Positions 30,229 to 53,135 of a stretch of 64,000 nt of DNA are shown here, in pieces. Made by a program: the position numbers and the translations under genes. The DNA comes from Halomicrobium urmianum (GTDB lineage: Archaea; Halobacteriota; Halobacteria; Halobacteriales; Haloarculaceae): positions 124,001 to 188,000 of the forward strand of contig NZ_CP084091.1 of NCBI RefSeq assembly GCF_020217425.1. The letters are read 5' to 3'. The number at the start of each line of letters is the position of its first letter. The first letter of the stretch is position 1. A model generated the notes under the pieces. That model searched no databases, was not told where the DNA came from, and saw only the letters and a program-made list of their open reading frames with translations.

Positions 30229-31020
30229 CTACGACCAGCCGGCCTCTCGACGCATCACGTCGTCACGGAGTTCCTCTATTGTCTCCACGATATCGTCGTC
30301 GTCCATCATCTCGACACGTCGAACCGTAAGTTCCTCTCGGAGTAGTGTCGTCGTCCGGCTTACGATGTTACTGTTCGACGGTGGATCGTCGTACGTTCCC
30401 TCCTCCTTGATTTCGTTCAGTGTGTCGTGACAGAGAAGGTCACCGCATGCGTGCGTAACAGGGATGTACCGTGCGAAATCGTGGTCTAGAACGTCGTTGG
30501 CGAGTTCTTGGAAACGGAGAACTTGCTTCGTTCTACTGTAGTCCCGATCCTCAACCTCTCCAGACTCACCTTCCTCGTAGGTGAGCTCAGCACCCCACCA
30601 GATCCGGTGTAGTGCGTTAGAGTATGCGTCCGTCCCAGCCCCCAGGAACTTCTCCTCCATGTTCCCTGGACTCTCTGGATCGAAGACGTGGTCCCACCGG
30701 TAGTGAACAAACTCCGGGAATCGAACGACACAAAGGTAGTGCCAAAGACCGGCATCCGCCGCCTCGTTGCGCGTCAGGTCGAGTGTACGGTGAAGTGTCG
30801 GAGCCAACTCGGCGTCTATGAGTGAGTCCTGAGCGTCGATGTCGTCGTCAGCACGGATTTCCTCTATTCGCTCGTCTATAGGACTGAGGTCTATGGAACG
30901 ACCCAGCGGCTGTAAGTACGGACCAAGGTCGTCCTCGGTGAGTTCCCGCTCGCCCGCGAGGAAGCGATTGTCGATCATCGGGTGGGCCGCACTCTGCAAG
31001 TGGTAAAGTTCAGTCGCCAC
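30229..31020 (-). CDS. DUF6339-like protein, module A third gene
   Basis: A 263-residue helical protein. Residues about 65-130 hold DAGLWHYLCVVRFPEFVHYR, NMEEKFLGAGTDAYSNALHR and IWWGAELTYE, which match, block by block, the protein at 43304-43993. The pattern fits the DUF6339 family as I recall it, which has no known biochemistry. GTG at 31020 was chosen because it aligns with the paralogue's start and overlaps the upstream stop by 11 nt; longer in-frame sequence to 31143 is non-homologous. It follows the ATPase and partner genes in one transcription unit. Confidence 0.65.
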   Translation of the reverse strand: MATELYHLQSAAHPMIDNRFLAGERELTEDDLGPYLQPLGRSIDLSPIDERIEEIRADDDIDAQDSLIDAELAPTLHRTLDLTRNEAADAGLWHYLCVVRFPEFVHYRWDHVFDPESPGNMEEKFLGAGTDAYSNALHRIWWGAELTYEEGESGEVEDRDYSRTKQVLRFQELANDVLDHDFARYIPVTHACGDLLCHDTLNEIKEEGTYDDPPSNSNIVSRTTTLLREELTVRRVEMMDDDDIVETIEELRDDVMRREAGWS

Positions 31021-32080
31021 TCTGGATCGCCTCCTCGATAAGATTCGTCGTGTCGGACGGGATGTCGTACTGCTGATGCACCGCACGTTCGATCCGCTGG
31101 ACGAGATCTGGGATATCGACGTGACTGCGAACGTCTTCGGCAAGTCGGATCGCCGCTTCGTCCTCCCCGAGATCGGGATACAAATCGTCCAAGAAGATGT
31201 CTAACACGTCTTCCTGCCACCGGTACTCTGGTTCGCCGGTGTCGGGGCTCGTGTCCCGTGCTGTCTGCATTAGTAGCTGCGTCCAGACGGAGTGCTCAAT
31301 GTAGTCGTAGAGTACATCGCGCAGCCGTGGTGGCCCACCCGTAGCTCCCGTATTGTTCAGAACTTCCACCACCTGTGGGTGTTCCTGGTTCAGATAGAGT
31401 TGGGGATTTCGCGGCGCCTCCAGGCTGAGATAGTGGATATGGTTCTCGTCGGGGAAGCTGTCGTAGTCGCTGAAGTCCTCTATGATCGGCATAAGAAGGC
31501 TTCCACCGTCCTCCCGCTCGTCAAGTCGAACGATCCACGAGAGCCCATCAGCGACTCGTGCACCGATCTTTGACGCGTGTTTCGACCCACCAGAGCCGCC
31601 TTTCTCGGTTCTGGTGAGGAACGGCTTGATCTTCACTCGTCCACGGTGGTCGTCACGGTTGATGCTCATAGTGAACTCGTAGGTTCCTCCATCTAGGGGA
31701 GAGTCGGCGAGTATCTGCCGGTCCCGACTCATTGCGAGAGGGTTCTCCTTCACCAGTGCGAGGCGACCCGGCGTCTCTTCCCACTCGTCGAACGGGAAGA
31801 TCTCCTCAACAGTATCCTGTTCGACGGAAACCGTACCTTCCAGCTCCAGACTTTCCCAGTTACCCTCGTCCACCAGCGATAGAAACTGGTCGTCCTCGTC
31901 GAGGTTTCCTCTATCACCGAGAGGAGCCCCATCTAGACGGAACGATTCGACATCGAATTCGAGCCCCTCTTCCTCGTACTCATGCGGGAGAGACTGGTTG
32001 ACTAAGCTGCCTGTCTGGACGTCATCTTCTCCTTCTTCGTCCGGTTCTGTTCCTTCGACTCCCTCGTTGACAGTCGCCAT
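31010..32080 (-). CDS. beta-rich partner of GHKL ATPase, module A second gene
   Basis: A 356-residue protein of unknown family. The N-terminus is acidic and low-complexity; the middle is beta-rich (GTYEFTMSINRDDHRGRVKI); the C-terminal half carries YLSLEAPRNPQLYLNQEHPQ and LRDVLYDYIEHSVWTQLLMQ, paralogous to blocks in 42265-43302. No nuclease or ATPase motif is visible. Its ATG overlaps the stop of the ATPase gene by one base, so the two products are probably made in fixed ratio and may form a complex. Confidence 0.6.
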   Translation of the reverse strand: MATVNEGVEGTEPDEEGEDDVQTGSLVNQSLPHEYEEEGLEFDVESFRLDGAPLGDRGNLDEDDQFLSLVDEGNWESLELEGTVSVEQDTVEEIFPFDEWEETPGRLALVKENPLAMSRDRQILADSPLDGGTYEFTMSINRDDHRGRVKIKPFLTRTEKGGSGGSKHASKIGARVADGLSWIVRLDEREDGGSLLMPIIEDFSDYDSFPDENHIHYLSLEAPRNPQLYLNQEHPQVVEVLNNTGATGGPPRLRDVLYDYIEHSVWTQLLMQTARDTSPDTGEPEYRWQEDVLDIFLDDLYPDLGEDEAAIRLAEDVRSHVDIPDLVQRIERAVHQQYDIPSDTTNLIEEAIQSGD

Positions 32081-33972
32081 TACTCGTCCCTCCGTTCTGC
32101 CACGTCAACCGACACCTTCAATCTGGTCTCGACTTGTCGGTGATCTTCTGTTGACACACCCTCGAAGGAGATCTTCGATGTTCCAGGAGCCGGTTCCAGC
32201 CGCCCGACTTGGACTCCATTCTGTTCCGGGAGTGATATTGAGACTCCAGCCGTATCTGACGAGATGTTCTGCACGGGAAGACGGTCCGACGTCGCTCTCT
32301 CCTCGGCCATCCGGATCAAGGAGACGGTGACTGCTCGTATCTCGTTCTGGTCGCTCAAAGGCTCCACCTCACCGTTGAACGACCAGTGTGTGTACACCTC
32401 GTCGAACGAGATGTTTGTGCTTCCGGTGACGCGCTGACTACTGGGAGACTCACGATCAGAACGACCACCTCGTGATTCGTTTCCAATATTGAACCGGTTT
32501 CCCAGACGCTGAGGCCCAGTCGTGCCTCGGTCAACGTCGGGCGCGACGAGTCCACGTAACGTTTCGGTCACGTCAGACTTGATACCCTCTACTGCGGTCC
32601 GGAACCCCCTGGAGTAGGTGTTCGCCAGTGTCTCCGTTCGCACCCACTCGTCGTGCTGAGGTGGCTCCGCAGCGGTCAGGAATTCCTCTACGGTAGTGTC
32701 TTCATCTCGTGGACTCTCGTCGGTTCCCCATGGTCGTGCGCGCCCACCGAGGAGGACGGCGTGGAAGTCCTGATTTCCGACGACGACTCTATCTCGGTCG
32801 TAGTACTCGACGACCATCCCCGCACCTCGGACGAACGCCACCTCGTTCCGATGCTGATACTCTCCGGTATCTGCACGTCGGACCAGCAAGTCGAGTTGGG
32901 TATCTGCACCGCCACTGCCGTCGTTCTTCTCGGGGACGTCGAGTGAGATGGCCGCCTGCGCGACATCTCCGGGTTCGTCCAGCTGACTGACCGAGTCAAC
33001 GCGGTCGTCGAGACAGCTTGTGAAGGGTTCGTACTGCGGATACTCGTCGATACTTGCTTGTTTTGTCTCACCCTCCACTTCGACTGCTACCTCCAGATCA
33101 CCACGATAAATCGCGGGCCAGAACCATTCGATTGCCATCTCCGTGATCTGGTCTGCTAACTCTTCGTCTTCTAGTCGCTCTTCCGCTGTAGGTACGCGGA
33201 AGTCTACAACTTGGATACTCGTTCCCGGTCCGTCTGGACGACTCAACTGGAGTTCGTCCGCTATCGATTCGGCTTCTTCTCCCCAGATGGACTCTGGCCT
33301 CGCGCCCTCCTCGTCGCCGTTCAAACCGCCGTACCAACCGTGCCCTTGGTACACCGTATCTCCGTCCTCCGACTTGTGCGTCGGTAAGCGTGTGCGACCG
33401 ATCAATCGAGGGGACTGGTCTTTCGGGTCGGGCTCGCTCAGCGTTGAGTTGAACATGACGAGTGACAGGCCAGAGTACAGCCAGAGGACAGCCTTCCCTA
33501 GACCGTAGCTCCCGCCGGCGGTATCTCCTGATTTACTGCTGAACAGGACGTCACGGACTAGTGCAGTGAAGTTCGATTCGTCGGCGTTCTCCTCACCGAG
33601 TAGACCTTCTGTGTTCTGGTCCTCGATAGTTAGAATTCGGATCTTCTCGTCGTCTTTTATACGCTTGATCGCCTCTGCGATGTGCTTGCCGCTCTCTGTG
33701 TCTGTCGCTAATTTAGCGTGCTCTGACCACGTATCGATATCGAGTGCTCTGAGGTACTCTATGGCCTCGTCGCCTTCTAACGACTCCAGTTTGAACGTGA
33801 CCCGTGCTGGTTGATCGTTGTCTAACCGTGCGTCGTTCGAGTTCTGCAGAACCTCTCGAACGAACGTCTTTAGCCCTGGTTCACCGTGCGACATCGCGTA
33901 CTTTGCGACGTCGTCACCGTATCGCGCATCGGTCGGTCGAGAGGTTGTGAATCCCCACTGACCGCTCATCAC
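32080..33972 (-). CDS. GHKL/MORC-like ATPase, module A first gene
   Basis: A 630-residue protein with a Bergerat-fold ATPase at the N-terminus. N box: E40, N44, D47 in VREVLQNSND. G1-like motif: EDQNTEGL (D118, N120, G123). G2 motif: GGSYGLGKA (G153-K160). The rest includes a transducer-like beta-alpha region (EWFWPAIYRGDLEVAVEVEG) and a C-terminal domain with no family match. GHKL proteins of MutL/Hsp90/MORC type act as ATP-driven clamps; MORC-like forms have been described in restriction-modification operons. It is a clear paralogue of 40364-42262. Its start lies 135 bp after the GIY-YIG gene. Confidence 0.75.
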   Translation of the reverse strand: MMSGQWGFTTSRPTDARYGDDVAKYAMSHGEPGLKTFVREVLQNSNDARLDNDQPARVTFKLESLEGDEAIEYLRALDIDTWSEHAKLATDTESGKHIAEAIKRIKDDEKIRILTIEDQNTEGLLGEENADESNFTALVRDVLFSSKSGDTAGGSYGLGKAVLWLYSGLSLVMFNSTLSEPDPKDQSPRLIGRTRLPTHKSEDGDTVYQGHGWYGGLNGDEEGARPESIWGEEAESIADELQLSRPDGPGTSIQVVDFRVPTAEERLEDEELADQITEMAIEWFWPAIYRGDLEVAVEVEGETKQASIDEYPQYEPFTSCLDDRVDSVSQLDEPGDVAQAAISLDVPEKNDGSGGADTQLDLLVRRADTGEYQHRNEVAFVRGAGMVVEYYDRDRVVVGNQDFHAVLLGGRARPWGTDESPRDEDTTVEEFLTAAEPPQHDEWVRTETLANTYSRGFRTAVEGIKSDVTETLRGLVAPDVDRGTTGPQRLGNRFNIGNESRGGRSDRESPSSQRVTGSTNISFDEVYTHWSFNGEVEPLSDQNEIRAVTVSLIRMAEERATSDRLPVQNISSDTAGVSISLPEQNGVQVGRLEPAPGTSKISFEGVSTEDHRQVETRLKVSVDVAERRDE

Positions 33973-34107: not shown

Positions 34108-35634
34108 TCAGAACTGTTCACTTGGGGGAGCACCAGTTGCCAAGTAGTGTGCACCGATGAGATCGAGGCGGACTTCATTAAGTTCACGGGACCGACGATA
34201 CGTGTCTGAACTTAGTCTATCGAGAGCGACGACAGAGAAACGGACCTCGTCTCCATACTCGTTCTGTAGTTTAAATAGGCGACTCGATATCGATCCGGTC
34301 GTACCCACTTCTTGAACTGTTTGACTCCACCGCTCCCCCATTTGGTCCCCGCGCCACAGTCGAAACGCGTGTATCCCGCTACTGTCGATCATGTCTCGCT
34401 CGGAGAGCGGACGGCTCTCGGTCCAGCCGAGTCCCAACCAGTGTTGGGCGGTCACGTCACGCCAAGGCTGCCAGGACGGTACGGTATACGAGGACCGTTC
34501 TGCGATGTCCTTTAGTTCCTGATGCAACTCGCCGTAGGAACCGCTCACGTGCTCGGCAGGCTCTCGGTTCAATTGGACCATAGGAGTCCAGCCGATCTCC
34601 CGCCGACAAATAGCTACCAAAGTCGCCTCTATGGCCCGACGATGTCTCCGATTCGCCGATATCGGGGGTGTCGTGACAGAGACCTCCATCTTACCCCCCG
34701 CGATCTCAGTAATTTGCTGAAGGGGACTGGCAGCACCGTGTTTGTCTCCCGTCTGCCGACCCGATTCACTCACTCCGGCCGAGAGATCAAGCCCTACGCG
34801 CTGTCGAACGCCCCCATCTGAACCAGACTCCCCCACATACATCAGACCTGGGAGTTCTGAGTGTCGAACCCGGTAGAGGCCTGGGCGGCGTGGCAGTTCT
34901 TTACGGAGTGTCTTCGAGTCTCGAAGGTCGAACCATCTTGACCAATCGAGCCCCATCCACGTTGAGGCCTGGGGATCCGGTTCGAGTCGAGTGAGTGGTC
35001 CCGGGACGTCGAGCGTTCGTGTCTCAGCTGCACTCCGGCGCGTAGTCTTATCAACGGTGGCGAGTTCCGACCGAACGGTTGACTCGGGAAGCGAGAGTAT
35101 CCGGGCGATTGCGTCACTACCGGGGACGTACTGTGAGAGGATCCACGTCGTCGCCTGTCGATTCGTCAGTCTGCTCTTGTCCACCACCGCTACGATGTCG
35201 TCAATAGCGTCTACGGGAAACTCCGAACAGGAGACGACGAACCCATCCCCACTGCTCAGTTCTCGGTCTCCAATCACCTTTCCGACCTGCCGGTCGTGAG
35301 CGGTCGCAACGGCGTCTCGGCCAACTTCTGTGAGGCCGGTTTGACCGGCCACAGTGTCCCAACATCCGTCCGCCTCTGCTAACACGTACAACAACCCGTC
35401 GTCGCTTCGACCAACAGGAAGAGGGTCGAAGCCCGTGAAGAGCGTTTCAACGTCGATTACAGACGTACTTTGCACTTCTCGCAGACCCCTAGCGAGTGAA
35501 TCGGCCTCTACGTGATACTGGGCAGCGACGGCTTCAACGATATCGCTGGAGACGGGTACACCGACGAATGGGTCCCCGACGTAGGACGAGTTCGAATCCG
35601 GATCCAGAAATACTCGACACTCGTTCTCGTCCAT
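34108..35634 (-). CDS. HTH and GIY-YIG nuclease
   Basis: A 508-residue protein. An HTH-like segment lies at about 156-200 (SRLTNRQATTWILSQY; DAIARILSLPESTVRSELAT). The nuclease domain starts RPGLYRVRH (G252-Y254) and MYVGES (Y266-G268), followed by Arg at about 278, Glu336 in AIEATLV and Asn356 in VQLNREP, so all five positions expected of an active GIY-YIG nuclease are present. The C-terminal 150 residues repeat part of the pattern (HAFRLWRGD and following) and may be a second degenerate copy. It lies between the variant methyltransferase and the GHKL ATPase on the same strand and is the likely effector of that operon. Confidence 0.65.
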   Translation of the reverse strand: MDENECRVFLDPDSNSSYVGDPFVGVPVSSDIVEAVAAQYHVEADSLARGLREVQSTSVIDVETLFTGFDPLPVGRSDDGLLYVLAEADGCWDTVAGQTGLTEVGRDAVATAHDRQVGKVIGDRELSSGDGFVVSCSEFPVDAIDDIVAVVDKSRLTNRQATTWILSQYVPGSDAIARILSLPESTVRSELATVDKTTRRSAAETRTLDVPGPLTRLEPDPQASTWMGLDWSRWFDLRDSKTLRKELPRRPGLYRVRHSELPGLMYVGESGSDGGVRQRVGLDLSAGVSESGRQTGDKHGAASPLQQITEIAGGKMEVSVTTPPISANRRHRRAIEATLVAICRREIGWTPMVQLNREPAEHVSGSYGELHQELKDIAERSSYTVPSWQPWRDVTAQHWLGLGWTESRPLSERDMIDSSGIHAFRLWRGDQMGERWSQTVQEVGTTGSISSRLFKLQNEYGDEVRFSVVALDRLSSDTYRRSRELNEVRLDLIGAHYLATGAPPSEQF

Positions 35635-35700: not shown

Positions 35701-36474
35701 TCAGAACTCGTCCAACTGGCGATTGTCATCCTTTTTACGCTTGACGTCCATCCGCGCGTCGTAGTCGGAGTAGTCCACACGCCCATCCGAAATCCCTTGT
35801 TCGTCTTCGTACACCATCAACCACACTCGAACCAGGTAGTAGATGAACGGTGCAGGAATCGCATTCTTCGCTATGTGACTCTTCGGATACGGTCCTGGTG
35901 GGTAGTTTTTGACTGCCGCCCACCACTCTCTGGAGCGTTCTGAGAAGAAGAACGACGAGGTCTCGGCTTTCTCAGACGGTCCATCTGTCGTCAAGAGCCG
36001 CTTCTCACGTGGTGGCTGTGGAACCTCGAAGGAGGTCTCGAAAGCGCGCTTGTACTCGATTGGCATACCGAACATCCGTCCGTTCAGAACGACGGGATCG
36101 TCAAGCGGTGCGCGCGGAACGTTTTCGATGATGTGGTGATCACAGTACTTCTCCGCGAGCATCCGTGCGCTCGGGATCATGTTCTCGTGCTCGTCGGGTT
36201 CCCCCGAGATACTCGTCGTCGCCGCCCATCGTGAGCAGACTGGGTGGAACAGTCCGAGATCGAACGTAACGTCGTCCTTGATCGGGAGGTCCCACTCCTT
36301 GTCCTCGATGTGGGCGTCTGCTTTGATCGGCGTACTTTCGTTTGTGTCCTTGGGGTCGATTCCGACACGAATTACGTTCCCGAAGTCGCTGAGGACCTCT
36401 GATTCCGTCCCGTAGTCCGCGAAACAGTGGAGGATTAGTGGCTCTTCGCGTGCCGGTCCCCCATCCGAAGTCAT
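35701..36474 (-). CDS. compact variant C5 cytosine methyltransferase-like protein
   Basis: A 257-residue protein with the order of a C5 methyltransferase but variant motifs: motif I-like HCFADYGTESE (about 17-26), motif IV HPVCSRW with the catalytic Cys80 kept but the preceding Pro replaced, and motif VI ENVPRAPL (E117-V119). No clear motif VIII (QxRxR) or X (GNxxxP) is seen. It resembles short phage-encoded C5 methylases. It may methylate, bind or sense cytosine-modified DNA. It is the first gene of a minus-strand run leading to the GIY-YIG and GHKL genes (66 bp before the former). Confidence 0.6.
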   Translation of the reverse strand: MTSDGGPAREEPLILHCFADYGTESEVLSDFGNVIRVGIDPKDTNESTPIKADAHIEDKEWDLPIKDDVTFDLGLFHPVCSRWAATTSISGEPDEHENMIPSARMLAEKYCDHHIIENVPRAPLDDPVVLNGRMFGMPIEYKRAFETSFEVPQPPREKRLLTTDGPSEKAETSSFFFSERSREWWAAVKNYPPGPYPKSHIAKNAIPAPFIYYLVRVWLMVYEDEQGISDGRVDYSDYDARMDVKRKKDDNRQLDEF

Positions 36475-38413: not shown

Positions 38414-39049
38414 CTACGCCTGCTTTGCCGATTCTCGGAAGTAGATGCAATACTCGTTGGCGAAACACTGCTCACACAGCGGTTCAGTCTGACAGACCAG
38501 CGCACCGAAATCAAGCAGAGCGAGATTGTACAGACGGGCCTCGTCAGGTACTAGTCTCTGCGTGAACGCTAACTGATCAGCTTCTGTCTCTGGCCACGTG
38601 TCTCGAAATACCCGACTGTACACCCTCTCAACGTTCCTGTCGAGCACCGGCAACTGGTCACCACGGCCGAAGCACAACGTAGCGTTCGCTACGTACAGGC
38701 CCACTCGCGGAAGTTCGATAAGCGATTCTGGCTCGGTGGGGAGGTGATCGTGCGTCGTGGCAATCTGCTTCAGTGCCTCTGCTCGCATGTTTTGAAATCC
38801 GAGAGGCTCGATAGCTTCGACGAGTTCATCCTCACTCGTCTCCGCTATCTCGTCTAGCGTGGGGAATCGTTCTAGGAACTCCGGATAGACTGCTGCGACG
38901 TTGTCAGCCGGCGTCTGAGTCAGGAAGAACTCCGCTACGAACACCTCGTACAGGGTTCGATCAGGTTCACGCCACGGATACTCACGGAGGTTCTCCTCAC
39001 CCCATTCGAGCAGGTCTTCCCGAAACCGGCGCTCCGTCTCAGACGACAT
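38414..39049 (-). CDS. HhH-GPD mismatch DNA glycosylase, MIG-like, with 4Fe-4S cluster
   Basis: A 211-residue EndoIII/MutY-superfamily glycosylase. The hairpin-helix-hairpin LPRVGLYVAN is followed by the catalytic Asp137 in VLDRNVERV. At the position that is Lys in EndoIII and Ser in MutY it has Tyr119, as in the thymine-DNA mismatch glycosylase MIG of Methanothermobacter. Cys186, 192, 195 and 201 form the iron-sulphur site. MIG removes T from T:G pairs made by deamination of 5-methylcytosine and is encoded beside a C5 methylase, exactly as here: the methyltransferase stop is 10 bp upstream of this ATG. The longer frame to 39166 overlaps the methylase and was rejected. Confidence 0.8.
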   Translation of the reverse strand: MSSETERRFREDLLEWGEENLREYPWREPDRTLYEVFVAEFFLTQTPADNVAAVYPEFLERFPTLDEIAETSEDELVEAIEPLGFQNMRAEALKQIATTHDHLPTEPESLIELPRVGLYVANATLCFGRGDQLPVLDRNVERVYSRVFRDTWPETEADQLAFTQRLVPDEARLYNLALLDFGALVCQTEPLCEQCFANEYCIYFRESAKQA

Positions 39050-39059
39050 CAGTTCTCTC

Positions 39060-40175
39060 TCAGTCGTCGGCGACGGAGGACTCGACGGACGGCGCAGCAG
39101 CGCCGACGTGCGAGAGGATTGCCTGTCCCATGTACTCACCGAGTTTCGGAGGGACTGCGTTACCAATCATCCGGCCCAGATTCGACACGCCGACGTCCTC
39201 CCAATCGTCGTAGAAGTCGTAGTCTTCTGGGAACGTCTGAAGCAGAGCCCCTTCAAGGATCGAGAGTGCTCGGTTCTGGTCCGTATCGTAGTGTCCAAAG
39301 CGACCACTTCCGTAATTGTAGAACTGCGTCGTGATCGTCGGAGAGGGTTCGTCGGGCCGCATACGACTGTAGGGTGCCTTGTACGAGCGTCCGCTCGCCT
39401 TCCGGTGACAATCCGCGAGAAGGTGGTCGAGGCCTTCTTCTTCCCAGAGAGTCCAATCTCCACCGGGTTCCATGTTGTCTATACGCTCCAGATTCTTCTT
39501 TGAGAGAGAACGTGCTCTGTGTACGTCGTTCTCGTCACAGACTTCCCCTGCTTCGATTGGTGGTAGGTGATCAATCGTGTCTTTGACCGTCGGGTAGTCG
39601 TCCTCGTTCTGGATCGGGGGGTCGGGTAGAGAGAGGGGTCCCCGCTTGGATGCCATGACCACCCACCGCTTCCGCTTCTGTGGGATCTCGTATTCGGGAC
39701 AGTAGACGTTCTTGTTCTCGTCACTGTTGACGTGGTAACCTTGGGATTCGAGGCTCTGGATGAACGAGTCGTAGACGCCGTCCTCTTGTTTCACCTGGAG
39801 TACGTTCTCGGTGACCACCACGTCTGGTTCGACGTATTCTGCGATCCGGGATACCTCATTCAGCAGCCCCCACTTTTGATGGTCCTCATGATCTTTTTCC
39901 TTCGAGTGTCCCATCGTAGAGTACGGCTGGCAAGGCGCACACGCCGCGAGAACCTTTAGATCCGCATCCCACGGGTACATCTGTGCAATCGGTTCGGGGT
40001 CCTGTGCCAGCGCGTGGACGTCCGCTCTGACGTAGTCGCCGTCTATGTTCTGTTCGTACGGGTACTTACAGTCCGGGTCTTGATCGATCCCTGCGACGAC
40101 CGAGATGCCGGATTGCTGGAGGCCATAACTGAGCCCGCCGGCCCCACAGAACAGGTCCACTGCGGCTACCTTCAT
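39060..40175 (-). CDS. DNA (cytosine-5) methyltransferase, possible DrmMII
   Basis: A 371-residue C5 methyltransferase with a complete motif set: motif I VDLFCGAGGLSYG, motif IV APCQPYS (catalytic Cys82), motif VI ENV (123-125), motif VIII IPQKRKRWVV, and motif X GNAVPPKL. The target recognition region lies at about 200-300. Class 2 DISARM systems use such a methylase to mark host DNA; here it is 6.4 kb from drmC, so it may instead serve the adjacent GHKL modules, or both. It is divergent from module B (188 bp) and co-directional with the glycosylase. Confidence 0.85.
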   Translation of the reverse strand: MKVAAVDLFCGAGGLSYGLQQSGISVVAGIDQDPDCKYPYEQNIDGDYVRADVHALAQDPEPIAQMYPWDADLKVLAACAPCQPYSTMGHSKEKDHEDHQKWGLLNEVSRIAEYVEPDVVVTENVLQVKQEDGVYDSFIQSLESQGYHVNSDENKNVYCPEYEIPQKRKRWVVMASKRGPLSLPDPPIQNEDDYPTVKDTIDHLPPIEAGEVCDENDVHRARSLSKKNLERIDNMEPGGDWTLWEEEGLDHLLADCHRKASGRSYKAPYSRMRPDEPSPTITTQFYNYGSGRFGHYDTDQNRALSILEGALLQTFPEDYDFYDDWEDVGVSNLGRMIGNAVPPKLGEYMGQAILSHVGAAAPSVESSVADD

Positions 40176-40363: not shown

Positions 40364-42262
40364 ATGGACCAGGAACAACTTCATATCAACGAAGCGGCCA
40401 AGTGGTTCTTCTTCAGTGGTGGGCCTGGAGCACCACGCTATGGCGACGATCCGACCAAACACGCCGTAGACCACGACTCTGAGGCGTTCGTCCGGGAGGT
40501 TCTTCAAAACGCGAACGATCAGGGCCTCTCGAACGGCGATCCAGTCGAAGTGACGTTCCGTTTCGTCACGCTCACTGGTGACGCTAAAGAGGAGTTTCTA
40601 GACGGACTCGGCTGGGACGATGGACTCGGTGAACGGATGCGAGCGGTCTCAAACACACACAATGGCCATCGCTACGAACGGGTCGTCGAACGAGTCAACG
40701 ACCCCGATGCCGAACTCCGCCTCCTCGTCGTCGAAGACAGAAACACGACCGGCTTAACCGGAACCTGGGACGAAGATTCGAACTATGCCGCGTTAGTACG
40801 GGACGAGCTTTACAGCAGCAAGCAGGACGACACTGCCGGCGGCTCGTACGGCCTGGGTAAGTCCGTACTATGGACGTTCTCGGGCGCTTCGACGGTCGTC
40901 TTCAACTCACACCTGGCTCACAGCGAGCGCGAAGACGATTCCCCGCGACTGATTGCCCGTTCTAAGTTCCCTACACACCAACTACCGGAGGAAGATACGA
41001 CGTACCAAGGTGCGGGGTGGCTCTGCCAGCCTATCGAGACGGACGATGGCCCGCGCCCCGAGTCTTTCTGGGGAGAGCGCGCGTCGCGGCTCGCGGAACA
41101 ACTGCACGTGGAACGGCCCGCAGTCAGCGGAACGAGCGCTATGGTCGTCGAGTTCCAAGACCCGACGCGAGACGAGCGACCAGACGTCGAAGACCTCGCA
41201 CAGGAGTTCGTTGAGGCCTCTGTCAAGTACTTCTGGCCAGCGATCTATCGGGGTGACCTCGAAATCACGGTCGAAACGCCCGACGAGACCCTGACGGCCG
41301 ACGTCGAGAGTGTCCCGGCGATTCGACCGTTCGTCGAGGCTTACGACGAGAGGACTACAGACGCTCAGACGTTGGTTGACCCCGGAGACGTTGCTGGACT
41401 CGACATCCCGGTTGATCTACCGCCTTGTGCCGATGGGACCGAGACTCCCGACGGCTCGGTACGGTTGTCGGCTCGCCTCGCATCCCCTGCGGACGACGAT
41501 ACGTACATGAATAACGTCGCGCTGTTCCGGGGTGCGGGAATGGTGGTCAAGTACTACGACCAGAGTCGTGTCGCCTACGGTGACCGGAACTTCTTCGGCG
41601 TACTAGCAGCCGGCGAAGCGCGGTCGGAAAGGTCCCCATCAGATAGTGATCGAGAGATCGACCGATTCCTGCGGTTCGCCGAACCGCCTGAGCACGACGA
41701 GTGGGAATCCACCGAGAACCTCCGCGAACAGTACCAGCGTGGATTCCGGACGGCACTCGACGACATGTTTGGAACGCTGCGTGACGGCCTTCGTCACCTA
41801 ATCTCGAAGGGAAGCAACGGCGACACCCTCTCCGACAACGTTCTGAACAGGTTCCCCATTCACGGGAGCGGAAATCCACGGTCCACGACATCACCTGCTG
41901 ACCCTGTCTTCGAGATCGATAGCTCGTCCCACTACGATGGCGACGCGTGGACAATCTCTGGTCGAGTCGAAGTACTTCCAGAGGAGTTCGATGGTTGGAG
42001 TGCCGACATCTCACTCACCGGAGTCGGTGAGGACGGATCCCGTTACGACGACATCCCTATCGACCACCTTGAGATCGAACAAGCGGACGTAACCGTGTCG
42101 TACGACGAGGGACGGGCTCATCTAGTCGCCGACGAAAACGTTCGAGAGATCTCGTTCACTGGTCGTTCTCATTCAGACGGTGACGCTGACTTAGTGCACG
42201 GTGACGTGGGTGCGACCCAATTAGAGATACTCGCGGAGTTGGAGACTCCGGAGGGGGACTAA
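40364..42262 (+). CDS. GHKL/MORC-like ATPase, module B first gene
   Basis: A 632-residue paralogue of the ATPase at 32080-33972, sharing long blocks (FVREVLQNAND, DDTAGGSYGLGKSVLW, KYFWPAIYRGDLEITVE). N box E45, N49, D52; G1-like EDRNTTGL (D125, N127, G130); G2 GGSYGLGKS (to K166). All residues needed for Bergerat-type ATP binding are present. The C-terminal domains differ more than the ATPase domains, suggesting different partners or targets. The ATG at 40364 follows TTTATAGC. It is divergent from the C5 methyltransferase, so the two units may be co-regulated. Confidence 0.75.
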   Translation: MDQEQLHINEAAKWFFFSGGPGAPRYGDDPTKHAVDHDSEAFVREVLQNANDQGLSNGDPVEVTFRFVTLTGDAKEEFLDGLGWDDGLGERMRAVSNTHNGHRYERVVERVNDPDAELRLLVVEDRNTTGLTGTWDEDSNYAALVRDELYSSKQDDTAGGSYGLGKSVLWTFSGASTVVFNSHLAHSEREDDSPRLIARSKFPTHQLPEEDTTYQGAGWLCQPIETDDGPRPESFWGERASRLAEQLHVERPAVSGTSAMVVEFQDPTRDERPDVEDLAQEFVEASVKYFWPAIYRGDLEITVETPDETLTADVESVPAIRPFVEAYDERTTDAQTLVDPGDVAGLDIPVDLPPCADGTETPDGSVRLSARLASPADDDTYMNNVALFRGAGMVVKYYDQSRVAYGDRNFFGVLAAGEARSERSPSDSDREIDRFLRFAEPPEHDEWESTENLREQYQRGFRTALDDMFGTLRDGLRHLISKGSNGDTLSDNVLNRFPIHGSGNPRSTTSPADPVFEIDSSSHYDGDAWTISGRVEVLPEEFDGWSADISLTGVGEDGSRYDDIPIDHLEIEQADVTVSYDEGRAHLVADENVREISFTGRSHSDGDADLVHGDVGATQLEILAELETPEGD

Positions 42263-42264
42263 GT

Positions 42265-43302
42265 GTGAGCCGACGTTCCCAACGACACCGTAGTACGGTA
42301 CTTCCGTTCAGCTACCGAGACGAAGGAGTCGAGTTTGAACTCGACTCCTTCGCTGTTGACCAGGGGAATCGAAAAGCGCTCGGCCTGAAGCCAGGGCAGA
42401 CCGAGATCAACCTCGCATCGGCATTGTCGTCTTCTGACAGCAGTGGCGATCCGGACTGGGAGACCCTCACTCTCGACGGGAAGCTTCGACTGCCCGAGGA
42501 GACGGTTCAGGCGGTCTTTCCACAAGATGAACGGGAACGCCTCCCTGCCAAACTCTACGTCACCATTCGCTGTCACGAAACGATCTACCGTGATCGGGTC
42601 GTCATCTCCGAGGCACCTACGACTCCAGGGGAATACGACGTAACGATAGAAGTCCCGAAGAGTACTGTCCGGGGCACGGTCGAACTTCGTCCGTATCTCG
42701 TTCGTACTGAATCTCGTCCGGGAGATGGTTCGAACGAGTACGCCGACCAGAAGAACTTCCGCGTCGCCAGTGGGACGCTGTACTACGTCGTCGTTGATGG
42801 ACCCCAAGACGACGAGCGAGCTGCAATTGACGGTGAGCAAGTGCGTTTCTCACAAAACGCTCACCTCCCGGATGGGAACAAGCTCTACTACCTCGACTTC
42901 CGGAACGAGAGTCGTCCTAAGTTGTGGATCAACTCCGATCATCCCCGTATTGCCGAGGTACTACAGAGTAGAGGATCTGTCGGGGCCGAGGCGCGGATGC
43001 GTGACGTGATACTCGACCAGGTGAGCTACGGTGTGTGGGTACAACTCCTTGTTCGTGCTAGGAGTGCTGTAGACGTAGAGGGCGAGGTCGAACACGAGTG
43101 GCAGGAGATGGTACTCCAGACGTTTGCTAGCAACCTCTACGAAACTAGCGACGTATCAGAAGCGACACACCGTCTCAAAGACGACCTCTCTGACCCGCAA
43201 ACCCTTCCCCACGTAATGCAGCGGATCGATAGCGAACTTCAGGAGTACATAGATCCACGAGAGCAGCTGATCCATCTCATGGAGGAGGGCCTCCAGATCT
43301 AA
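42265..43302 (+). CDS. beta-rich partner of GHKL ATPase, module B second gene
   Basis: A 345-residue paralogue of the protein at 31010-32080. Shared blocks are YYLDFRNESRPKLWINSDHP and MRDVILDQVSYGVWVQLLVR; the beta-rich middle (GEYDVTIEVPKSTVRGTVEL) also corresponds. It lacks the acidic N-terminal tail of copy A. GTG start two bases after the ATPase stop. No catalytic motif is recognised; a scaffold or DNA-binding role beside the ATPase is inferred from conserved linkage in both modules. Confidence 0.6.
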   Translation: MSRRSQRHRSTVLPFSYRDEGVEFELDSFAVDQGNRKALGLKPGQTEINLASALSSSDSSGDPDWETLTLDGKLRLPEETVQAVFPQDERERLPAKLYVTIRCHETIYRDRVVISEAPTTPGEYDVTIEVPKSTVRGTVELRPYLVRTESRPGDGSNEYADQKNFRVASGTLYYVVVDGPQDDERAAIDGEQVRFSQNAHLPDGNKLYYLDFRNESRPKLWINSDHPRIAEVLQSRGSVGAEARMRDVILDQVSYGVWVQLLVRARSAVDVEGEVEHEWQEMVLQTFASNLYETSDVSEATHRLKDDLSDPQTLPHVMQRIDSELQEYIDPREQLIHLMEEGLQI

Positions 43303-43303
43303 C

Positions 43304-43993
43304 GTGACCGAAACAGAATTACACCGACTGACCGAAGATGGACGTCGCCTCGTCGGTGAATCGTTCATGCAGGGCGAGGCAGCGATCACCGACGAACAAC
43401 TGACCGAGTACGTCGAGCCCATGCCGGGTCGTCCGACAGCCGATCTCGACAGGATCGACTCGGCGGTAGAGCAGGTGCTAGAGGAGTACCCCGAGTACGA
43501 TACAGCTATAGACGGCGCACTCGCTGAAGAGATCCACCGTGGTCTCGATATCACGAGACGAACCGCGGGCGATCCAGGCCTCTGGCACTGGCTGGCAGTA
43601 GTGCGGTATCCCGATCTCGTCCGGCACCGTTGGGAGTATCGTTCCGAGGAGGCGATGAGAGAGAAATTCCTCGGTGCGGGCTCCGACTTGTACTCGAACG
43701 CCATCCACCGGCTCTGGTGGATCGCGGAACTCACTTCGCGTGGTGACGATTATTCGACGACTGACGCGGTCTTTGCCAACCAGACGATGGTCAACAAGGT
43801 GTTCGACCGCTGGTTCGCGCGCTACCAGCCCGCTGTACGAGCCATGTGTAATGAACTCGCAGACGAACCGTCGCGTGTCATAGACGAGACGACACGGCGG
43901 TTCAATCACGCACTGACGAACGTGCAGCTTGAAGGACTGTCGGAGAACGAGGCACGAGAGATGATCAGACAGATTGTTGCCGAGTCTCGGTAA
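43304..43993 (+). CDS. DUF6339-like protein, module B third gene
   Basis: A 229-residue paralogue of 30229-31020, with GDPGLWHWLAVVRYPDLVRH, MREKFLGAGSDLYSNAIHRL and WWIAELTS. It starts with GTG one base after the previous stop. The alpha-helical, Trp-rich core and the repeated linkage to the ATPase suggest it belongs to the same complex. The function is unknown. Confidence 0.65.
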   Translation: MTETELHRLTEDGRRLVGESFMQGEAAITDEQLTEYVEPMPGRPTADLDRIDSAVEQVLEEYPEYDTAIDGALAEEIHRGLDITRRTAGDPGLWHWLAVVRYPDLVRHRWEYRSEEAMREKFLGAGSDLYSNAIHRLWWIAELTSRGDDYSTTDAVFANQTMVNKVFDRWFARYQPAVRAMCNELADEPSRVIDETTRRFNHALTNVQLEGLSENEAREMIRQIVAESR

Positions 43994-46591: not shown

Positions 46592-47479
46592 CTATATCGG
46601 CAGATCAACTGGGTGCGAGTACTCGAACACTTCGTCGAACACTGTCGCAGCGTCCTCAACGATGTCACCTTCGACGACGACGCCGAACTCGAAGTTAGTC
46701 GAGAGACTCGTATCGGTCAGGTTTGCGCTTCCGACGTAGCAGACCCTATCGTCAACGATCACGATCTTCGCGTGAGTCGCAAACGCCTGAGATCCCTGTT
46801 TCTCGTCCCATCGGTAGAGGTCTCTCACCTCGAAGTTGTCGCGGTGGTCCTCGTCGATTAGGTCCCACATCTTGTTGAGCGTCGTTCGTGTATCGCCTTC
46901 CTCGTCTGCGGTTTCTCGTGTCAGTAGTCGTGTCTCGATATCTCGCCGGGGGAGACTCGCAAGGTCGGACACGAGTTCGAGTGATGGGTCGAAGTACGGG
47001 TTGGCGATCCGTACCGACGAATCGGCGTCGAACACCTGGTTGCGGATGGTAGATGCGATGTCGGGGATCGAACGGACACGTGCGGAGGTCGGTTCGAATC
47101 CTCCCGGAAGTGTAGCCACGAACTCAACCCCGTCGTCCTGACCCGTTTGGGAGGAACGACCGTCTGATGCAATCACCGCGGCTTGCTGGGTCAGTACTCG
47201 GTCTACTTCGGAGGGATCGACCTCGAAGGTGTAGTCCGCAAAACCCCGCTCGTCGGTCGCCGATTGAGTCGCTGCTCCGTTCTTCTGGAGACACGTGAAG
47301 AGGGCAGCCGCTTCTCGGGTGGTCAGCGGTGTTTCTAATCCCCGATCTACGTCGGCCCGAGTTACGGCACTGCGGTTGAGAGCCAAGATGGTGTCCCGGA
47401 TAGCGACGACACGGTCAAGGTCGTCGAACTGGCGGACCACCGCGAAGTTCGTGCAAATCGCGTCGTGGTCGTCGGTCAC
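46592..47479 (-). CDS. drmC: DrmC, phospholipase D-family protein of DISARM
   Basis: A 295-residue protein with a PLD nuclease signature, HAKIVIVDDRVCYVGSANL (H-x-K-x4-D, about residue 236), followed by NFEFGVVVEGD; an upstream SVRIANPYFDP strand belongs to the same fold. DrmC is the PLD component of DISARM; in tested systems it is not always essential. It starts with GTG in a GTGA overlap with the drmB stop; the frame extends upstream to 47569 but that part lies inside drmB. The 3' end lies 55 bp from the inverted-repeat cassette. Confidence 0.85.
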   Translation of the reverse strand: MTDDHDAICTNFAVVRQFDDLDRVVAIRDTILALNRSAVTRADVDRGLETPLTTREAAALFTCLQKNGAATQSATDERGFADYTFEVDPSEVDRVLTQQAAVIASDGRSSQTGQDDGVEFVATLPGGFEPTSARVRSIPDIASTIRNQVFDADSSVRIANPYFDPSLELVSDLASLPRRDIETRLLTRETADEEGDTRTTLNKMWDLIDEDHRDNFEVRDLYRWDEKQGSQAFATHAKIVIVDDRVCYVGSANLTDTSLSTNFEFGVVVEGDIVEDAATVFDEVFEYSHPVDLPI

Positions 47480-49425
47480 ACGTATTCTGACTCCCAGAAC
47501 GCGGGTATTCGACCTCTGTCGCCGCCGACTAGATATCGGCGGTCGAGGTTCCCGTTGGCACCCTCGCAAGCGACTTCACTCATGTGGAGGCACGCGTGGC
47601 AGGCACCGTCCTCGTGTTCACATACGGGGTCGTACACGCACTGCTGGACGTCCGCGATAGTCTCGTCAACCCACGGGTGAATCCTCGTCTTGAACAGTGT
47701 GTGCATCCCTCCTAGGGAGAAGTGTTCGGTGCTACTCGCGTAGAGGAAGATAGCCGGAATGCTCGGCATCACGTACTCCGAGATGCTGTTGCTGTCGAGA
47801 CCACACTGTCCGCTCGCCGTCCGCATCAGCGCGTGGCTCATCGAGTGGAGGAGCGTGTACACTTCCCGCGTGAGATCGTCTTCGATGGGCGAGTAGTGGT
47901 CACGGAGTTCGTTGGTGTCCACGTTCTCCAAGAACCACTCCTTGAGGTCACTCTCATCGTCTGTATCGGGACGCTCGACACCACGCATTGTTCCCTTTTC
48001 GTCCAGCCACTCGATGATCGCGGATCGGTCCACTTGGAGGACGATGGCCTCAGAGGGAGTTTGGTCAACGTACACAGGGGTGCTGTCCTCACCCCGGGGA
48101 TGCGGGAAGGGCTGTAGGTCCGTCCGCGACCGTTCGGGGCGGTCGCGGGTGAACCCGAACGTGTAGTTCAGCAGGGGGAGATTGTCCACGACCCACGCTG
48201 ACGCGATGTTCACTTTCTGGAGTTTTTCCGGGTATACCTCTGCCTCCGGGTTCGATTCGAGGAAATCATCCTGCTCCAAGAGACCGTCTAGGGACAGAGG
48301 AGTGGGTTGTCGTTCCATCCCGTCTGTAGCGTCTAGATTCCCTTCGTATCCCTGAGTCGAGCGCAGGTAGGTGAAGAGTTCGTGAGAGAGCGTCGAGTAC
48401 GCCTGATCTACGTCACTATCGCCGCCTCGCTGGGAGGGGACCTCGACACGTTCGCGGTTCTCTTCCACGACCTCCTCTCGCGTCGAACCCTTTATCGTGT
48501 CTTCCGCGACGTCGAAGACGTCTCCGAGATCCACTCCGCTCTCGATCATCTTTTCGACCTGTTCTGCTCCCACTTTCTCCTTCAGCTCCTCTATCTGCTT
48601 CTCCCGGCGTTTCGCGTCGCGTTCGTCCGTCGTCATCCGGCCGAGTTCTTCGTAGGTCTTCCCCTCCTCTTCGACGACGTCGTCGAGGTCACCGAGGTGA
48701 GCGGCCATCAGTATGCGGGCCCAGCTCTCACCGTATTCGATCTCGCCGCTGTATCGTTGGTCGATTGGAAGGTTGACGAGGACGTCGCCTTGGGAGTAGT
48801 AGACGGAGTTGCTCGCTATCGGACGGAAGTAGACTCGTTCCTTGTTGCACTTGGTGCAACGTTTCGACATGTTCCCACAGAAGTCGCCACACTCACCACA
48901 GTAGAAGTACCACGAGAGGGGGTCGTTGATGTTCTGCTTGTTGAGGTAGATGTGGTCGTATCCGTGGTCCGGGTTGCTACAGGGCTGCGGGTTGATCGAC
49001 ATCATGTTCCCGCAGTCGTGTACGAGAACGAAGGCGAGTTGACGGAGTTCACCGCCACACTCGGGACACTCTCCGTTGGTGTAGACGAAGTGACTGGGCT
49101 CTTTCTTACTCACGACCCGGTGGCAACTCCGGTTCTGACAGTACATGGTCAGCGGGTAGAGCGATCCGACGACGCGGTTCGGTCGGCGGAAATCCACGTC
49201 GTCCACCGTGAGGTCTACCCAGGGGTCCTCGTCGTCGTTCCGGAAGCTAGATGCGTGAGTGGCGATCTGTTCCGCGACGTAGTTCGCGTCGAGCGAGTCG
49301 ATCTTGTCGGTTTCCCAACGGGAAACTTTCATCGATAGTCCCCGCCGCCCATAGTCAAAGAGCGACTCGGGACCGAATCGGTACATCACCTGCGCCAGAC
49401 CGCGTTTCATCTCTGAATCTGCCAT
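47476..49425 (-). CDS. drmB: DrmB, DUF1998 protein of DISARM
   Basis: A 649-residue protein. Residues about 90-195 contain Cys-rich fingers (CQNRSCHR; CPECGGELRQ; CGECGDFCGN; CTKCNKE). The C-terminal DUF1998 domain has LLHSMSHALMRTASGQCGLD, IFLYASSTEHFSLGGMHTLF and the final Cys cluster CVYDPVCEHEDGACHACLHM. DrmB forms the DrmAB complex with the helicase and binds DNA. It starts two bases after the drmA stop and overlaps drmC, so drmA-drmB-drmC form one operon. Confidence 0.9.
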   Translation of the reverse strand: MADSEMKRGLAQVMYRFGPESLFDYGRRGLSMKVSRWETDKIDSLDANYVAEQIATHASSFRNDDEDPWVDLTVDDVDFRRPNRVVGSLYPLTMYCQNRSCHRVVSKKEPSHFVYTNGECPECGGELRQLAFVLVHDCGNMMSINPQPCSNPDHGYDHIYLNKQNINDPLSWYFYCGECGDFCGNMSKRCTKCNKERVYFRPIASNSVYYSQGDVLVNLPIDQRYSGEIEYGESWARILMAAHLGDLDDVVEEEGKTYEELGRMTTDERDAKRREKQIEELKEKVGAEQVEKMIESGVDLGDVFDVAEDTIKGSTREEVVEENRERVEVPSQRGGDSDVDQAYSTLSHELFTYLRSTQGYEGNLDATDGMERQPTPLSLDGLLEQDDFLESNPEAEVYPEKLQKVNIASAWVVDNLPLLNYTFGFTRDRPERSRTDLQPFPHPRGEDSTPVYVDQTPSEAIVLQVDRSAIIEWLDEKGTMRGVERPDTDDESDLKEWFLENVDTNELRDHYSPIEDDLTREVYTLLHSMSHALMRTASGQCGLDSNSISEYVMPSIPAIFLYASSTEHFSLGGMHTLFKTRIHPWVDETIADVQQCVYDPVCEHEDGACHACLHMSEVACEGANGNLDRRYLVGGDRGRIPAFWESEYV

Positions 49426-52400: not shown

Positions 52401-53135
52401 CCAGTACCGGCGCTCGTCTTGCCGGTAGGTCTCCATCGCGTCCGTCAGCGCATCGTCGGCCGTGAGTGGGGGTAGCTCGCCGTCGGACTTTGCGGCTCGC
52501 TTTACGTCGCCCGCGGTAACTGTGAGAGGGCCAGCTTCGATCTGAACTCGTTCGTACACTGGTCGGAGTTCCTCTAGTGACGCATCGTCTCCTGCATACT
52601 CCCCGGATTCTTCGTCCTCGGAATCTTCTGCCTCGGACTCTTCGTCTTCCTCAGGCGGTGTGAGCGCATCGTCCTCAGCAATTTCCGGATCGAATCCGAC
52701 GGGCCCACCGAACTCCTGTTGCTCCTCGTAGGTCGGTAGACGGCGGTAGTAGACCTTCGCAGTAGGATTGATGGTCACCGTCTCGTCGTCCGGAACTGAC
52801 GCCGGGAGCTTGAACTGGAGCCCCATAGTGAAGGGTGCGACCCGCGTGGCGATGTTCCCGAACGCGTCGTCGGACTCCTGGGCTTCGCGGTACTGGTACT
52901 GGCTCGCCAGTGCGCCCGCGAAGAACTGGTCCTTCGGGTTGACGTCGTAGACGGTCTGACCGTAGTCGCCTCGTCCAGTGATTCGTTCGACGAGTCGTTC
53001 CAGTAGAACGTTGTTGACGGCTTGGTGCTGCTGATACTCCTTGTCGTCTTCGTCTATCTCGTACGCGTCGTCCGGTGGTCGAACGTACCCGCGAGAGTCG
53101 GATTGTGGTGGAATTTCACGCGGCCCGAGGCCCAT
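49428..53135 (-). CDS. drmA: DrmA, SF2 helicase of DISARM
   Basis: A 1235-residue protein. Helicase motifs: Walker A YFPTGGGKTEAYLG (about 538), DELH in ILIQDELHLLREEFG (about 773), motif III TATATIKGAE (about 812), motif V SMISHGVDVDTLNFI (about 1010) and motif VI QAYSRVGRH (about 1040). The long N-terminal region (to about 500) has an acidic insert (about 140-190) and coiled segments. A Cys cluster (CPFCGED ... CTNDDCDEEE) lies between motifs I and II. DrmA recognises unmodified foreign DNA together with DrmB. It is the largest gene of the operon; 202 bp separate it from drmE. Confidence 0.9.
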   Translation of the reverse strand: MGLGPREIPPQSDSRGYVRPPDDAYEIDEDDKEYQQHQAVNNVLLERLVERITGRGDYGQTVYDVNPKDQFFAGALASQYQYREAQESDDAFGNIATRVAPFTMGLQFKLPASVPDDETVTINPTAKVYYRRLPTYEEQQEFGGPVGFDPEIAEDDALTPPEEDEESEAEDSEDEESGEYAGDDASLEELRPVYERVQIEAGPLTVTAGDVKRAAKSDGELPPLTADDALTDAMETYRQDERRYWEPDPPEEVDSRNEDKIPETALEDEETFETFLEQRFSGDTPTPVWDFEISLTAQYDEDDIIVSVSFVNKHGVEYPDALDPKGEEWRAFFFDVNSEVSVEETPIEPFVSDEIRNEYHYDPEMDGLGRNCSVERTDPTTIETVTVPIHEQRKYRSRETLSAPFSDFAWGTIETHLDRISREMEEAREQYESMRSEVLTDRSDEAREKFDENLEAFEKERRRFDQGRKLIRDDVGHSRAAFKFMNQTFDQMGEKYEEWYLFQIIYIVMAIPDVVAQTEDIDAEDHCLDEVDVIYFPTGGGKTEAYLGLVVFTAFRDRLRGKAHGTTALTKFPLRLLSLQQLQRIADVFAQAELIRRRECPDTDEFSLGYFVGSGNTPNQLMETDEDGNLTDNISLVKEEDSRYAEKWKIVTTCPFCGEDAVKLDGDYDRMRLLHICTNDDCDEEELPIYVTDREVYRYAPTFVVSTIDKIAVVGMQRRFRTLFGRLKKRCPKHGFSGENQCLVANRGYSRYSCDEDVDDVNPVDPPSILIQDELHLLREEFGAFDSHYETFLQEWANRVGDGWDIKNVTATATIKGAENQVHALYWKDVNTYPSPGPLLKQSFYAYEDPHRLGRRIVGSVPHNVSRTYALVEVLREYADVIQHYQRNPDELSAALEREHHRTTPYGEVVDLNLPDEDSERRNAVLDILEYYDTQIAYNIQKVDSDRLQRAVPSMINPWLETRDEERDPLNSVVMSGETGFDVVRDVLGRLESEDPDDPVDIVNATSMISHGVDVDTLNFISFFGMPRQTAEYIQAYSRVGRHVTGTVFDLFNPIHVRDRSHYTRFDRYHDFQDLLVEATPLERWAEFAVNCTMPGIFAATLLQYYDEQLESSAGRVYLYDSFREAQRAGDLDKDELLEFVKRSYCVTSDQRPEWAEDRTVDLYERKVEREFEDIWERCMSGHPKDGYQGWIGNMIKRSEDDRGPMRSLRDIDEQLPIDVDTGTAQVLNMFDRRK

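What the first reader, a model, noticed from the sequence alone, without database searches (positions are those of the whole stretch)
38414..40175. C5 methylase paired with a MIG-like T:G mismatch glycosylase
The glycosylase has Tyr119 at the EndoIII-Lys/MutY-Ser position, Asp137 and a 4Fe-4S cluster, and starts 10 bp after the methylase stop. The same pairing is known for MIG in Methanothermobacter. It implies that the methylase makes 5-methylcytosine and that deamination damage in this high-GC genome is repaired by a dedicated enzyme. A mismatch glycosylase is not a standard DISARM component.
Basis: partly seen in the sequence, partly recalled or inferred. Interest (0 to 1): 0.65.

Follow-up and report, generated by a model that had tools for sequence, protein, structure and literature searches.

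The report
Haloarchaeal DNA methylase with T:G-mismatch repair partner
A salt-loving archaeon carries, inside a cluster of antiviral genes, a DNA methylase whose neighbouring gene very probably repairs the T:G mismatches that the methylated base causes when it decays; the pairing was known from heat-loving microbes and turns out to recur across haloarchaea, where the bacterial repair enzyme for this job (Vsr) was not found.

Summary
A C5-cytosine methylase (39060-40175, -) is followed after 10 bp by a 211-aa HhH-GPD glycosylase (38414-39049, -). The Tyr119 argument is weak, because MutY enzymes, including haloarchaeal ones, also have Tyr there. Better evidence gives the same answer: Ala48 and Leu176 match the two residues that separate Mig.MthI (A50, L187) from E. 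coli MutY (V45, Q182). The MutY C-terminal domain is absent, the tree excludes the protein from MutY, and its model fits Mig.MthI best (TM 0.91, 1.4 A). The genome has its own MutY and an EndoIII-like gene. Among 391 haloarchaeal genomes, 26 keep an intact relative and 21 of those carry the matching methylase. Of the 12 nearest methylases, 11 have the gene directly downstream (9 intact). dN/dS is 0.09-0.16. The pair belongs mainly to a GHKL-ATPase/DUF6339 module (PADLOC PDC-M33): 5 of those 12 genomes have no DrmA. Yet 27 of 52 DrmA-bearing haloarchaea have or had a MIG-like gene nearby, from two separate clades. No Vsr was found in the 391. Most likely it is a dedicated T:G (and U:G) mismatch glycosylase protecting 5mC sites: a Mig.MthI-type pair in a new setting. 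Activity and methylation site are untested.

The parts
39060..40175 (-). C5-cytosine DNA methyltransferase, 371 aa
   Evidence: Pfam PF00145 3e-46; motifs I, IV, VI, VIII, X; PADLOC DrmMII 863 bits over 371/371, a model probably made from this or a near-identical locus
38414..39049 (-). MIG-like HhH-GPD mismatch glycosylase, 211 aa; E40, A48, Y119, D137, L176, Cys186/192/195/201
   Evidence: Pfam PF00730; residue table; tree; AF2 pLDDT 94.9, best PDB fold match 1kea Mig.MthI TM 0.91 rmsd 1.4 A
39050..39059 (-). 10-bp gap between methylase stop and glycosylase ATG (8-11 bp in 11 of 11 near relatives that have the gene)
40364..42262 (+). M33A, GHKL-type ATPase by eye (REVLQNANDQ, EDRNTTGL, GGSYGLGKS), divergent from the methylase
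   Evidence: PADLOC PDC-M33A 2e-22; no Pfam hit; conserved beside the methylase
42265..43302 (+). M33B, unknown, 345 aa
   Evidence: conserved position; no family
43304..43993 (+). M33C, DUF6339, 229 aa
   Evidence: Pfam PF19866 1e-20; PDC-M33C
35701..36474 (-). 257-aa C5-MTase-like protein without a target-recognition region (HPxC, IENxP, KNxIP conserved); next gene of the operon in several relatives
   Evidence: alignment A3; weak fold matches led by C5 MTases on a low-confidence model
34108..35634 (-). 508-aa protein with a GIY-YIG-like motif by eye (GLYRVRHSELPGLMYVGES)
   Evidence: conserved neighbour; no Pfam hit
32080..33972 (-). second, divergent M33A copy
31010..32080 (-). second M33B copy
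30229..30984 (-). second M33C copy (DUF6339 1.9e-18)
46592..47569 (-). DrmC (PLD)
47476..49425 (-). DrmB
49428..53135 (-). DrmA helicase
53338..55803 (-). DrmE

Best explanation
The methylase marks cytosines at a still unknown site as 5-methylcytosine, as the modification arm of a defence module (GHKL ATPase/M33B/DUF6339 triplets, a second C5-MTase-like protein, a GIY-YIG-like protein, with or without DISARM). 5-methylcytosine deaminates to thymine and leaves T:G mismatches, which ordinary uracil glycosylases do not see. The glycosylase encoded by the next gene flips out the mismatched T (or U), cuts its glycosidic bond with Asp137/Glu40 assistance as a monofunctional enzyme (no Lys at the EndoIII lyase position), and hands the abasic site to base excision repair. 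It does for this C5 methylase what Vsr does for Dcm and what Mig.MthI does for the GGCC methylase of pFV1. Shown here: gene pair, fold, specificity-determining residues, exclusion from MutY, selection, and recurrence with C5 methylases. Inferred: substrate, methylation site, biological role.
For: A48/L176 equal Mig.MthI A50/L187, whose change to V/Q turns Mig.MthI towards A/G (PMC2714593, citing Fondufe-Mittendorf 2002); the Ala+Leu pair holds in most of the window clade, while haloarchaeal MutY has Leu/Asn. No MutY C-terminal domain (211 aa). MutY forms its own side of the tree, 99/99. AF2 model matches 1kea best: TM 0.91, rmsd 1.4 A, against about 2.5-3.5 A for MutY. The same genome has a separate MutY and an EndoIII-like gene. 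21 of 26 genomes with an intact gene also hold the methylase, P=8e-23 by a hypergeometric test that ignores relatedness. dN/dS 0.09-0.16. Similar C5 methylase/MIG-like pairs on Thermus, Caldicellulosiruptor and Methanothermobacter plasmids and on a viral contig. No Vsr in 391 haloarchaea, with the search ringing in control genomes.
Against: No activity data. Overall sequence identity to Mig.MthI is only 28% and phmmer ranks MutY slightly above MIG. The Mig.MthI methyl-pocket Arg47 is Gln45 here, as in MutY (Phe27 is Tyr24). The deep branch joining the family to Mig.MthI is not resolved. The gene is dispensable: absent beside an intact methylase in Halobacterium sp. DL1 and broken in four more.
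Confidence: 0.83

Rival explanations
1. It is a truncated MutY-like adenine glycosylase acting on A:G or A:oxoG, and its place beside the methylase is incidental.
For: TIGR mutY is the best NCBIfam match (1e-40, far below its cut-off); 33% identity to MutY against 28% to MIG; Gln45 as in MutY.
Against: Ala48/Leu176; no C-terminal oxoG-recognition domain; outside MutY in the tree; a full-length MutY is present elsewhere in the genome; recurrent pairing with C5 methylases.
Confidence: 0.07
2. It is mainly a general U:G/T:G deamination-repair enzyme carried by the mobile island, not tuned to this methylase's sites.
For: Mig.MthI acts equally on U:G and T:G (PMC2714593); 5 of 26 genomes have the gene without this methylase, though some of those have another C5 methylase nearby.
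Against: Close operon-like coupling to the methylase and strong co-occurrence.
Confidence: 0.07
3. It is a defence effector: a base-excision restriction or abasic-site-making enzyme that attacks invading DNA carrying modified or mismatched bases, with the host protected or rapidly repaired.
For: It lies inside a defence cluster; PADLOC's only label is 'Type II nicking endonuclease'; restriction glycosylases are known, though in the unrelated R.PabI family (PMC10273834).
Against: The PADLOC label probably reflects REBASE's filing of mismatch-repair (V) enzymes (inference). Loss of the gene in several loci leaves the rest of the module intact. The active site matches a mismatch enzyme.
Confidence: 0.03

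Closest known systems
Mig.MthI (V.MthTI) with the GGCC C5 methylase and NgoPII-type REase, plasmid pFV1 of Methanothermobacter
   Same: HhH-GPD fold, Glu/Tyr/Asp active site, Ala50/Leu187 equivalents, no MutY C-terminal domain, gene close to a C5 methylase on a mobile element
   Different: 28% identity; Arg47 is Gln; shorter first Fe-S loop; host is a haloarchaeon; linked to a GHKL/DUF6339 module and DISARM instead of a plain Type II REase; co-directional with the methylase (pFV1 has them on opposite strands, separated by the REase and a small gene)
Vsr with Dcm and other C5 methylases (very short patch repair)
   Same: Dedicated T:G repair gene next to a C5 methylase; Iyer et al. 2008 (PMC2292703) report C5 methylases and Vsr-type genes in MORC/paraMORC (GHKL) plus SFII-helicase neighbourhoods
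   Different: Glycosylase instead of a nicking endonuclease; Vsr not found in 391 haloarchaea
DISARM class 2 (DrmMII, DrmA, DrmB, DrmC, DrmE)
   Same: DrmA, B, C and E lie about 6-15 kb away; PADLOC labels the methylase DrmMII
   Different: 5 of 12 genomes with a >=90% identical methylase lack DrmA altogether; the glycosylase is not a defined DISARM part
PADLOC PDC-M33 (predicted defence candidate)
   Same: M33A and M33C models match the triplet next to the methylase
   Different: The model set names only a candidate; no paper in the library mentions it. Here the triplets come in 1-4 divergent copies with the methylase and glycosylase
MutY and EndoIII
   Same: HhH-GPD fold, Fe-S loop; MutY shares Tyr at position 119 in many members
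   Different: MutY specificity residues, C-terminal domain and clade are not met; EndoIII Lys is not met

Membership tests
Mig.MthI-type T:G mismatch glycosylase | HhH-GPD fold with catalytic Asp (D144) and Glu42 | tested here: met
   D137, E40; Pfam PF00730; fold match 1kea TM 0.91
Mig.MthI-type T:G mismatch glycosylase | Ala50 and Leu187 in the base pocket instead of MutY Val/Gln | tested here: met
   A48 and L176 (residue roles from PMC2714593)
Mig.MthI-type T:G mismatch glycosylase | Tyr126 (needed, but shared with many MutY) | tested here: met
   Y119, but not diagnostic
Mig.MthI-type T:G mismatch glycosylase | Methyl pocket Phe27 and Arg47 | tested here: inconclusive
   Tyr24 and Gln45 in the window; Phe at the first position in many relatives
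Mig.MthI-type T:G mismatch glycosylase | Same clade as Mig.MthI | tested here: inconclusive
   Outside MutY (99/99), deep joins unresolved
Mig.MthI-type T:G mismatch glycosylase | T:G and U:G excision | not testable with these tools
   needs an assay
MutY | Val45/Gln182 (or Glu) and a C-terminal oxoG domain | tested here: not met
   A48, L176; protein ends at residue 211
EndoIII (bifunctional) | Lys at the Tyr119 position | tested here: not met
   Tyr
C5-cytosine DNA methyltransferase | Motifs I, IV (PCQ), VI (ENV), VIII, X with a TRD between VIII and IX | tested here: met
   Pfam 3e-46
C5-cytosine DNA methyltransferase | Makes 5mC, at which site | not testable with these tools
   needs RIMS-seq or EM-seq
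DISARM (for the locus) | DrmA, DrmB, DrmC plus a methylase | tested here: met
DISARM (methylase and glycosylase as obligate parts) | Co-occurrence with DrmA | tested here: not met
   5 of 12 near-identical methylases in genomes without DrmA; 15 of 26 window-family glycosylase genomes without DrmA
Vsr system | PF03852 gene | tested here: not met
   0 of 391 genomes

The most novel reading that the evidence does not exclude
The glycosylase works with the GHKL (MutL-like) ATPase M33A as part of the immune mechanism itself: base excision at T:G or modified bases in invading DNA makes abasic sites that M33A or DrmAB senses, so mismatch-repair chemistry and restriction are one system.
Probability: 0.05. 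Interest if true: 0.8.

Novelty: new variant of a known kind. Interest (0 to 1): 0.42.

Why it matters
5-methylcytosine is a mutation hazard, and it is an open matter how archaea with C5 methylases tolerate it. This gives a widespread, genetically tractable case outside thermophiles in which the repair gene travels with the methylase, apparently filling the place that Vsr has in bacterial MORC/DISARM-like systems. It also shows that automatic labels mislead here: the glycosylases are mostly left as 'hypothetical', called 'mutY', or filed as a 'nicking endonuclease'. If the methylase really belongs to the M33 module, the 'DrmMII' call at such loci needs revision.

Tried and rejected
Tyr119 as the diagnostic residue: rejected, since haloarchaeal and B. 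stearothermophilus MutY share it. Filing the pair as a DISARM component: rejected for the window family because of DrmA-less genomes. Vsr as a hidden alternative: none found. Structure of the 257-aa C5-MTase-like neighbour: low confidence (pLDDT 54), fold matches only suggestive. Papers on PDC-M33 or DUF6339, and on DISARM with glycosylase in haloarchaea: none useful in the library. The YprA/DISARM preprint PMC12458937 and the archaeal RM survey PMC10609329 do not mention a glycosylase. The N-terminal extension of the 773-aa methylase in L139 looked like an HhH domain by eye, but neither Pfam nor PDB sequence search supported it. No attempt was made to guess the methylation site from k-mer counts, because such inference is weak.

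Full report
OBSERVATION. The methylase (39060-40175, minus, 371 aa) is a canonical C5 enzyme. The glycosylase starts at ATG 39049, 10 bp after the methylase stop, and is 211 aa long. Tyr119 and Asp137 are correctly placed against Mig.MthI Y126 and D144. The four C-terminal cysteines support a 4Fe-4S cluster, but with C-X5-C-X2-C-X5-C spacing, one residue shorter in the first loop than Mig.MthI.

WHICH GLYCOSYLASE. The published discriminators are Mig.MthI A50 and L187 against E. coli MutY V45 and Q182; swapping them moved Mig.MthI from T/G to A/G (PMC2714593, citing Fondufe-Mittendorf 2002). The window protein has A48 and L176, and this pair holds through most of its clade, whereas haloarchaeal MutY has Leu and Asn. 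It lacks the MutY C-terminal domain. In a 66-sequence tree MutY is one side of a 99/99 branch and the window clade lies outside it; the deeper joins, including that to Mig.MthI, are not resolved. The AlphaFold model (pLDDT 94.9) matches the Mig.MthI crystal structure best: TM 0.91, 1.4 A, against about 2.5-3.5 A for MutY. Against this, identity to Mig.MthI is only 28% and the methyl-pocket Arg47 is Gln45. The same genome has a separate full-length MutY and an EndoIII-like gene, so this is not the housekeeping enzyme.

IS THE PAIR REAL? In a sample of 391 haloarchaeal genomes, 34 have a methylase match at E<=1e-40, and 31 of these are at least about 45% identical. Of the 12 that are >=90% identical, 11 have the glycosylase on the same strand 8-11 bp downstream; 9 are intact, 2 carry a stop codon (one also E40K), and 1 (Halobacterium sp. 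DL1) has none and instead holds an inverted GHKL ATPase plus partner. Of 26 genomes with an intact window-family glycosylase, 21 also have the methylase (hypergeometric P=8e-23, not corrected for relatedness). Glycosylase dN/dS is 0.09-0.16 and methylase 0.04-0.08. So the pair is selected and co-inherited, but the glycosylase is dispensable and sometimes decays while the methylase stays.

WHAT DOES IT BELONG TO? Around the pair, relatives keep one to four copies of a triplet: a GHKL-type ATPase (PADLOC PDC-M33A; GHKL motifs read by eye), a 345-aa protein, and a DUF6339 protein. Many also keep a 257-aa C5-MTase-like protein without a TRD and a 508-aa GIY-YIG-like protein. DISARM (DrmA, B, C, E) adjoins in the window and in several relatives. 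But 5 of the 12 genomes with the near-identical methylase have no DrmA at E<=1e-30. I therefore assign the methylase and glycosylase to the M33 module, with DISARM an optional neighbour. PADLOC's DrmMII label (863 bits, full length) probably comes from a model built on this or a near-identical locus (inference).

Of 52 haloarchaeal genomes with DrmA, 21 have an intact MIG-like gene near DrmA and 6 more a broken or fragmentary one: 27 of 52, within about 16 kb where distances were measured. They come from two separate clades: the window family (11 intact, 3 broken) and a second family (10 intact, 3 fragments). The second family usually sits next to a roughly 770-aa C5 methylase. Genome-level co-occurrence is 21 against 5.6 expected, P=5.6e-10, again uncorrected for relatedness. 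MIG-like glycosylases are thus recurrent accessories of haloarchaeal DISARM loci through their methylases. Vsr was not found in any of the 391 genomes, while the same search rang in E. coli and three other controls. Outside haloarchaea, similar C5 methylase/MIG-like pairs occur on Thermus, Caldicellulosiruptor and Methanothermobacter plasmids and on a terminase-bearing viral contig with a 7-bp gap.

MECHANISM. Most likely (0.83): a monofunctional T:G/U:G mismatch glycosylase that repairs deaminated 5mC made by its partner methylase, filling the role of Vsr. Fold, residues, pairing and selection are shown; substrate, motif and phenotype are inferred.

NOVELTY. The methylase-MIG pairing is known from Mig.MthI on pFV1. 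Iyer et al. 2008 described C5 methylases with Vsr-type genes in MORC/paraMORC-helicase neighbourhoods (PMC2292703). New here, as far as the library shows, are the broad haloarchaeal spread, the tie to a GHKL/DUF6339 module, two MIG-like clades at DISARM loci, and the apparent replacement of Vsr.

Noticed in passing
30229-33972 and 40364-43993: Two divergent copies of a GHKL ATPase / 345-aa / DUF6339 triplet in one window; related loci have up to four copies, as if different specificities were stacked (L046, L052).
   Followed up: partly
L033:15842-17833 (Halobacterium sp. DL1 plasmid): The glycosylase is missing and a small GHKL (HATPase_c) protein plus a 272-aa partner sits inverted at its place beside a 91% identical methylase.
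   Followed up: partly
35701-36474: C5-MTase-like protein with HPxC instead of PCQ, IENxP and KNxIP motifs and no TRD; no family match, 88-92% conserved among the nearest loci.
   Followed up: partly
L139:10443-12764 and relatives L075, L141, L142, L184, L190, L191: C5 methylases of about 770 aa at DISARM loci with a roughly 330-aa N-terminal extension of no known family (HhH-like by eye, not supported by searches), next to the second MIG-like clade.
   Followed up: partly
L046, L047, L048, L050, L052, L053: Loci with two different C5 methylases and one glycosylase, as for an asymmetric recognition site.
   Followed up: no
L042 (E40K, stop near residue 187) and L044 (stop at residue 16): Glycosylase pseudogenes beside intact methylases; the inactivating codon changes look compatible with G:C to A:T transitions (not tested).
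   Followed up: no
L067, L068, L070, L072, L118, L121, L136, L137: A third HhH-GPD group in haloarchaea with His at the L187 position; substrate and context not studied.
   Followed up: no
L160:1633-8528 (IMG/VR contig): Viral contig with a ParB-like protein (by eye), an unknown 304-aa protein, a C5 methylase and a MIG-like glycosylase 7 bp apart, and a terminase.
   Followed up: partly
44005-45766: Two conserved unknown genes (335 and 253 aa) lie between DrmC and the M33 triplet and travel with the DrmABCE variant.
   Followed up: no
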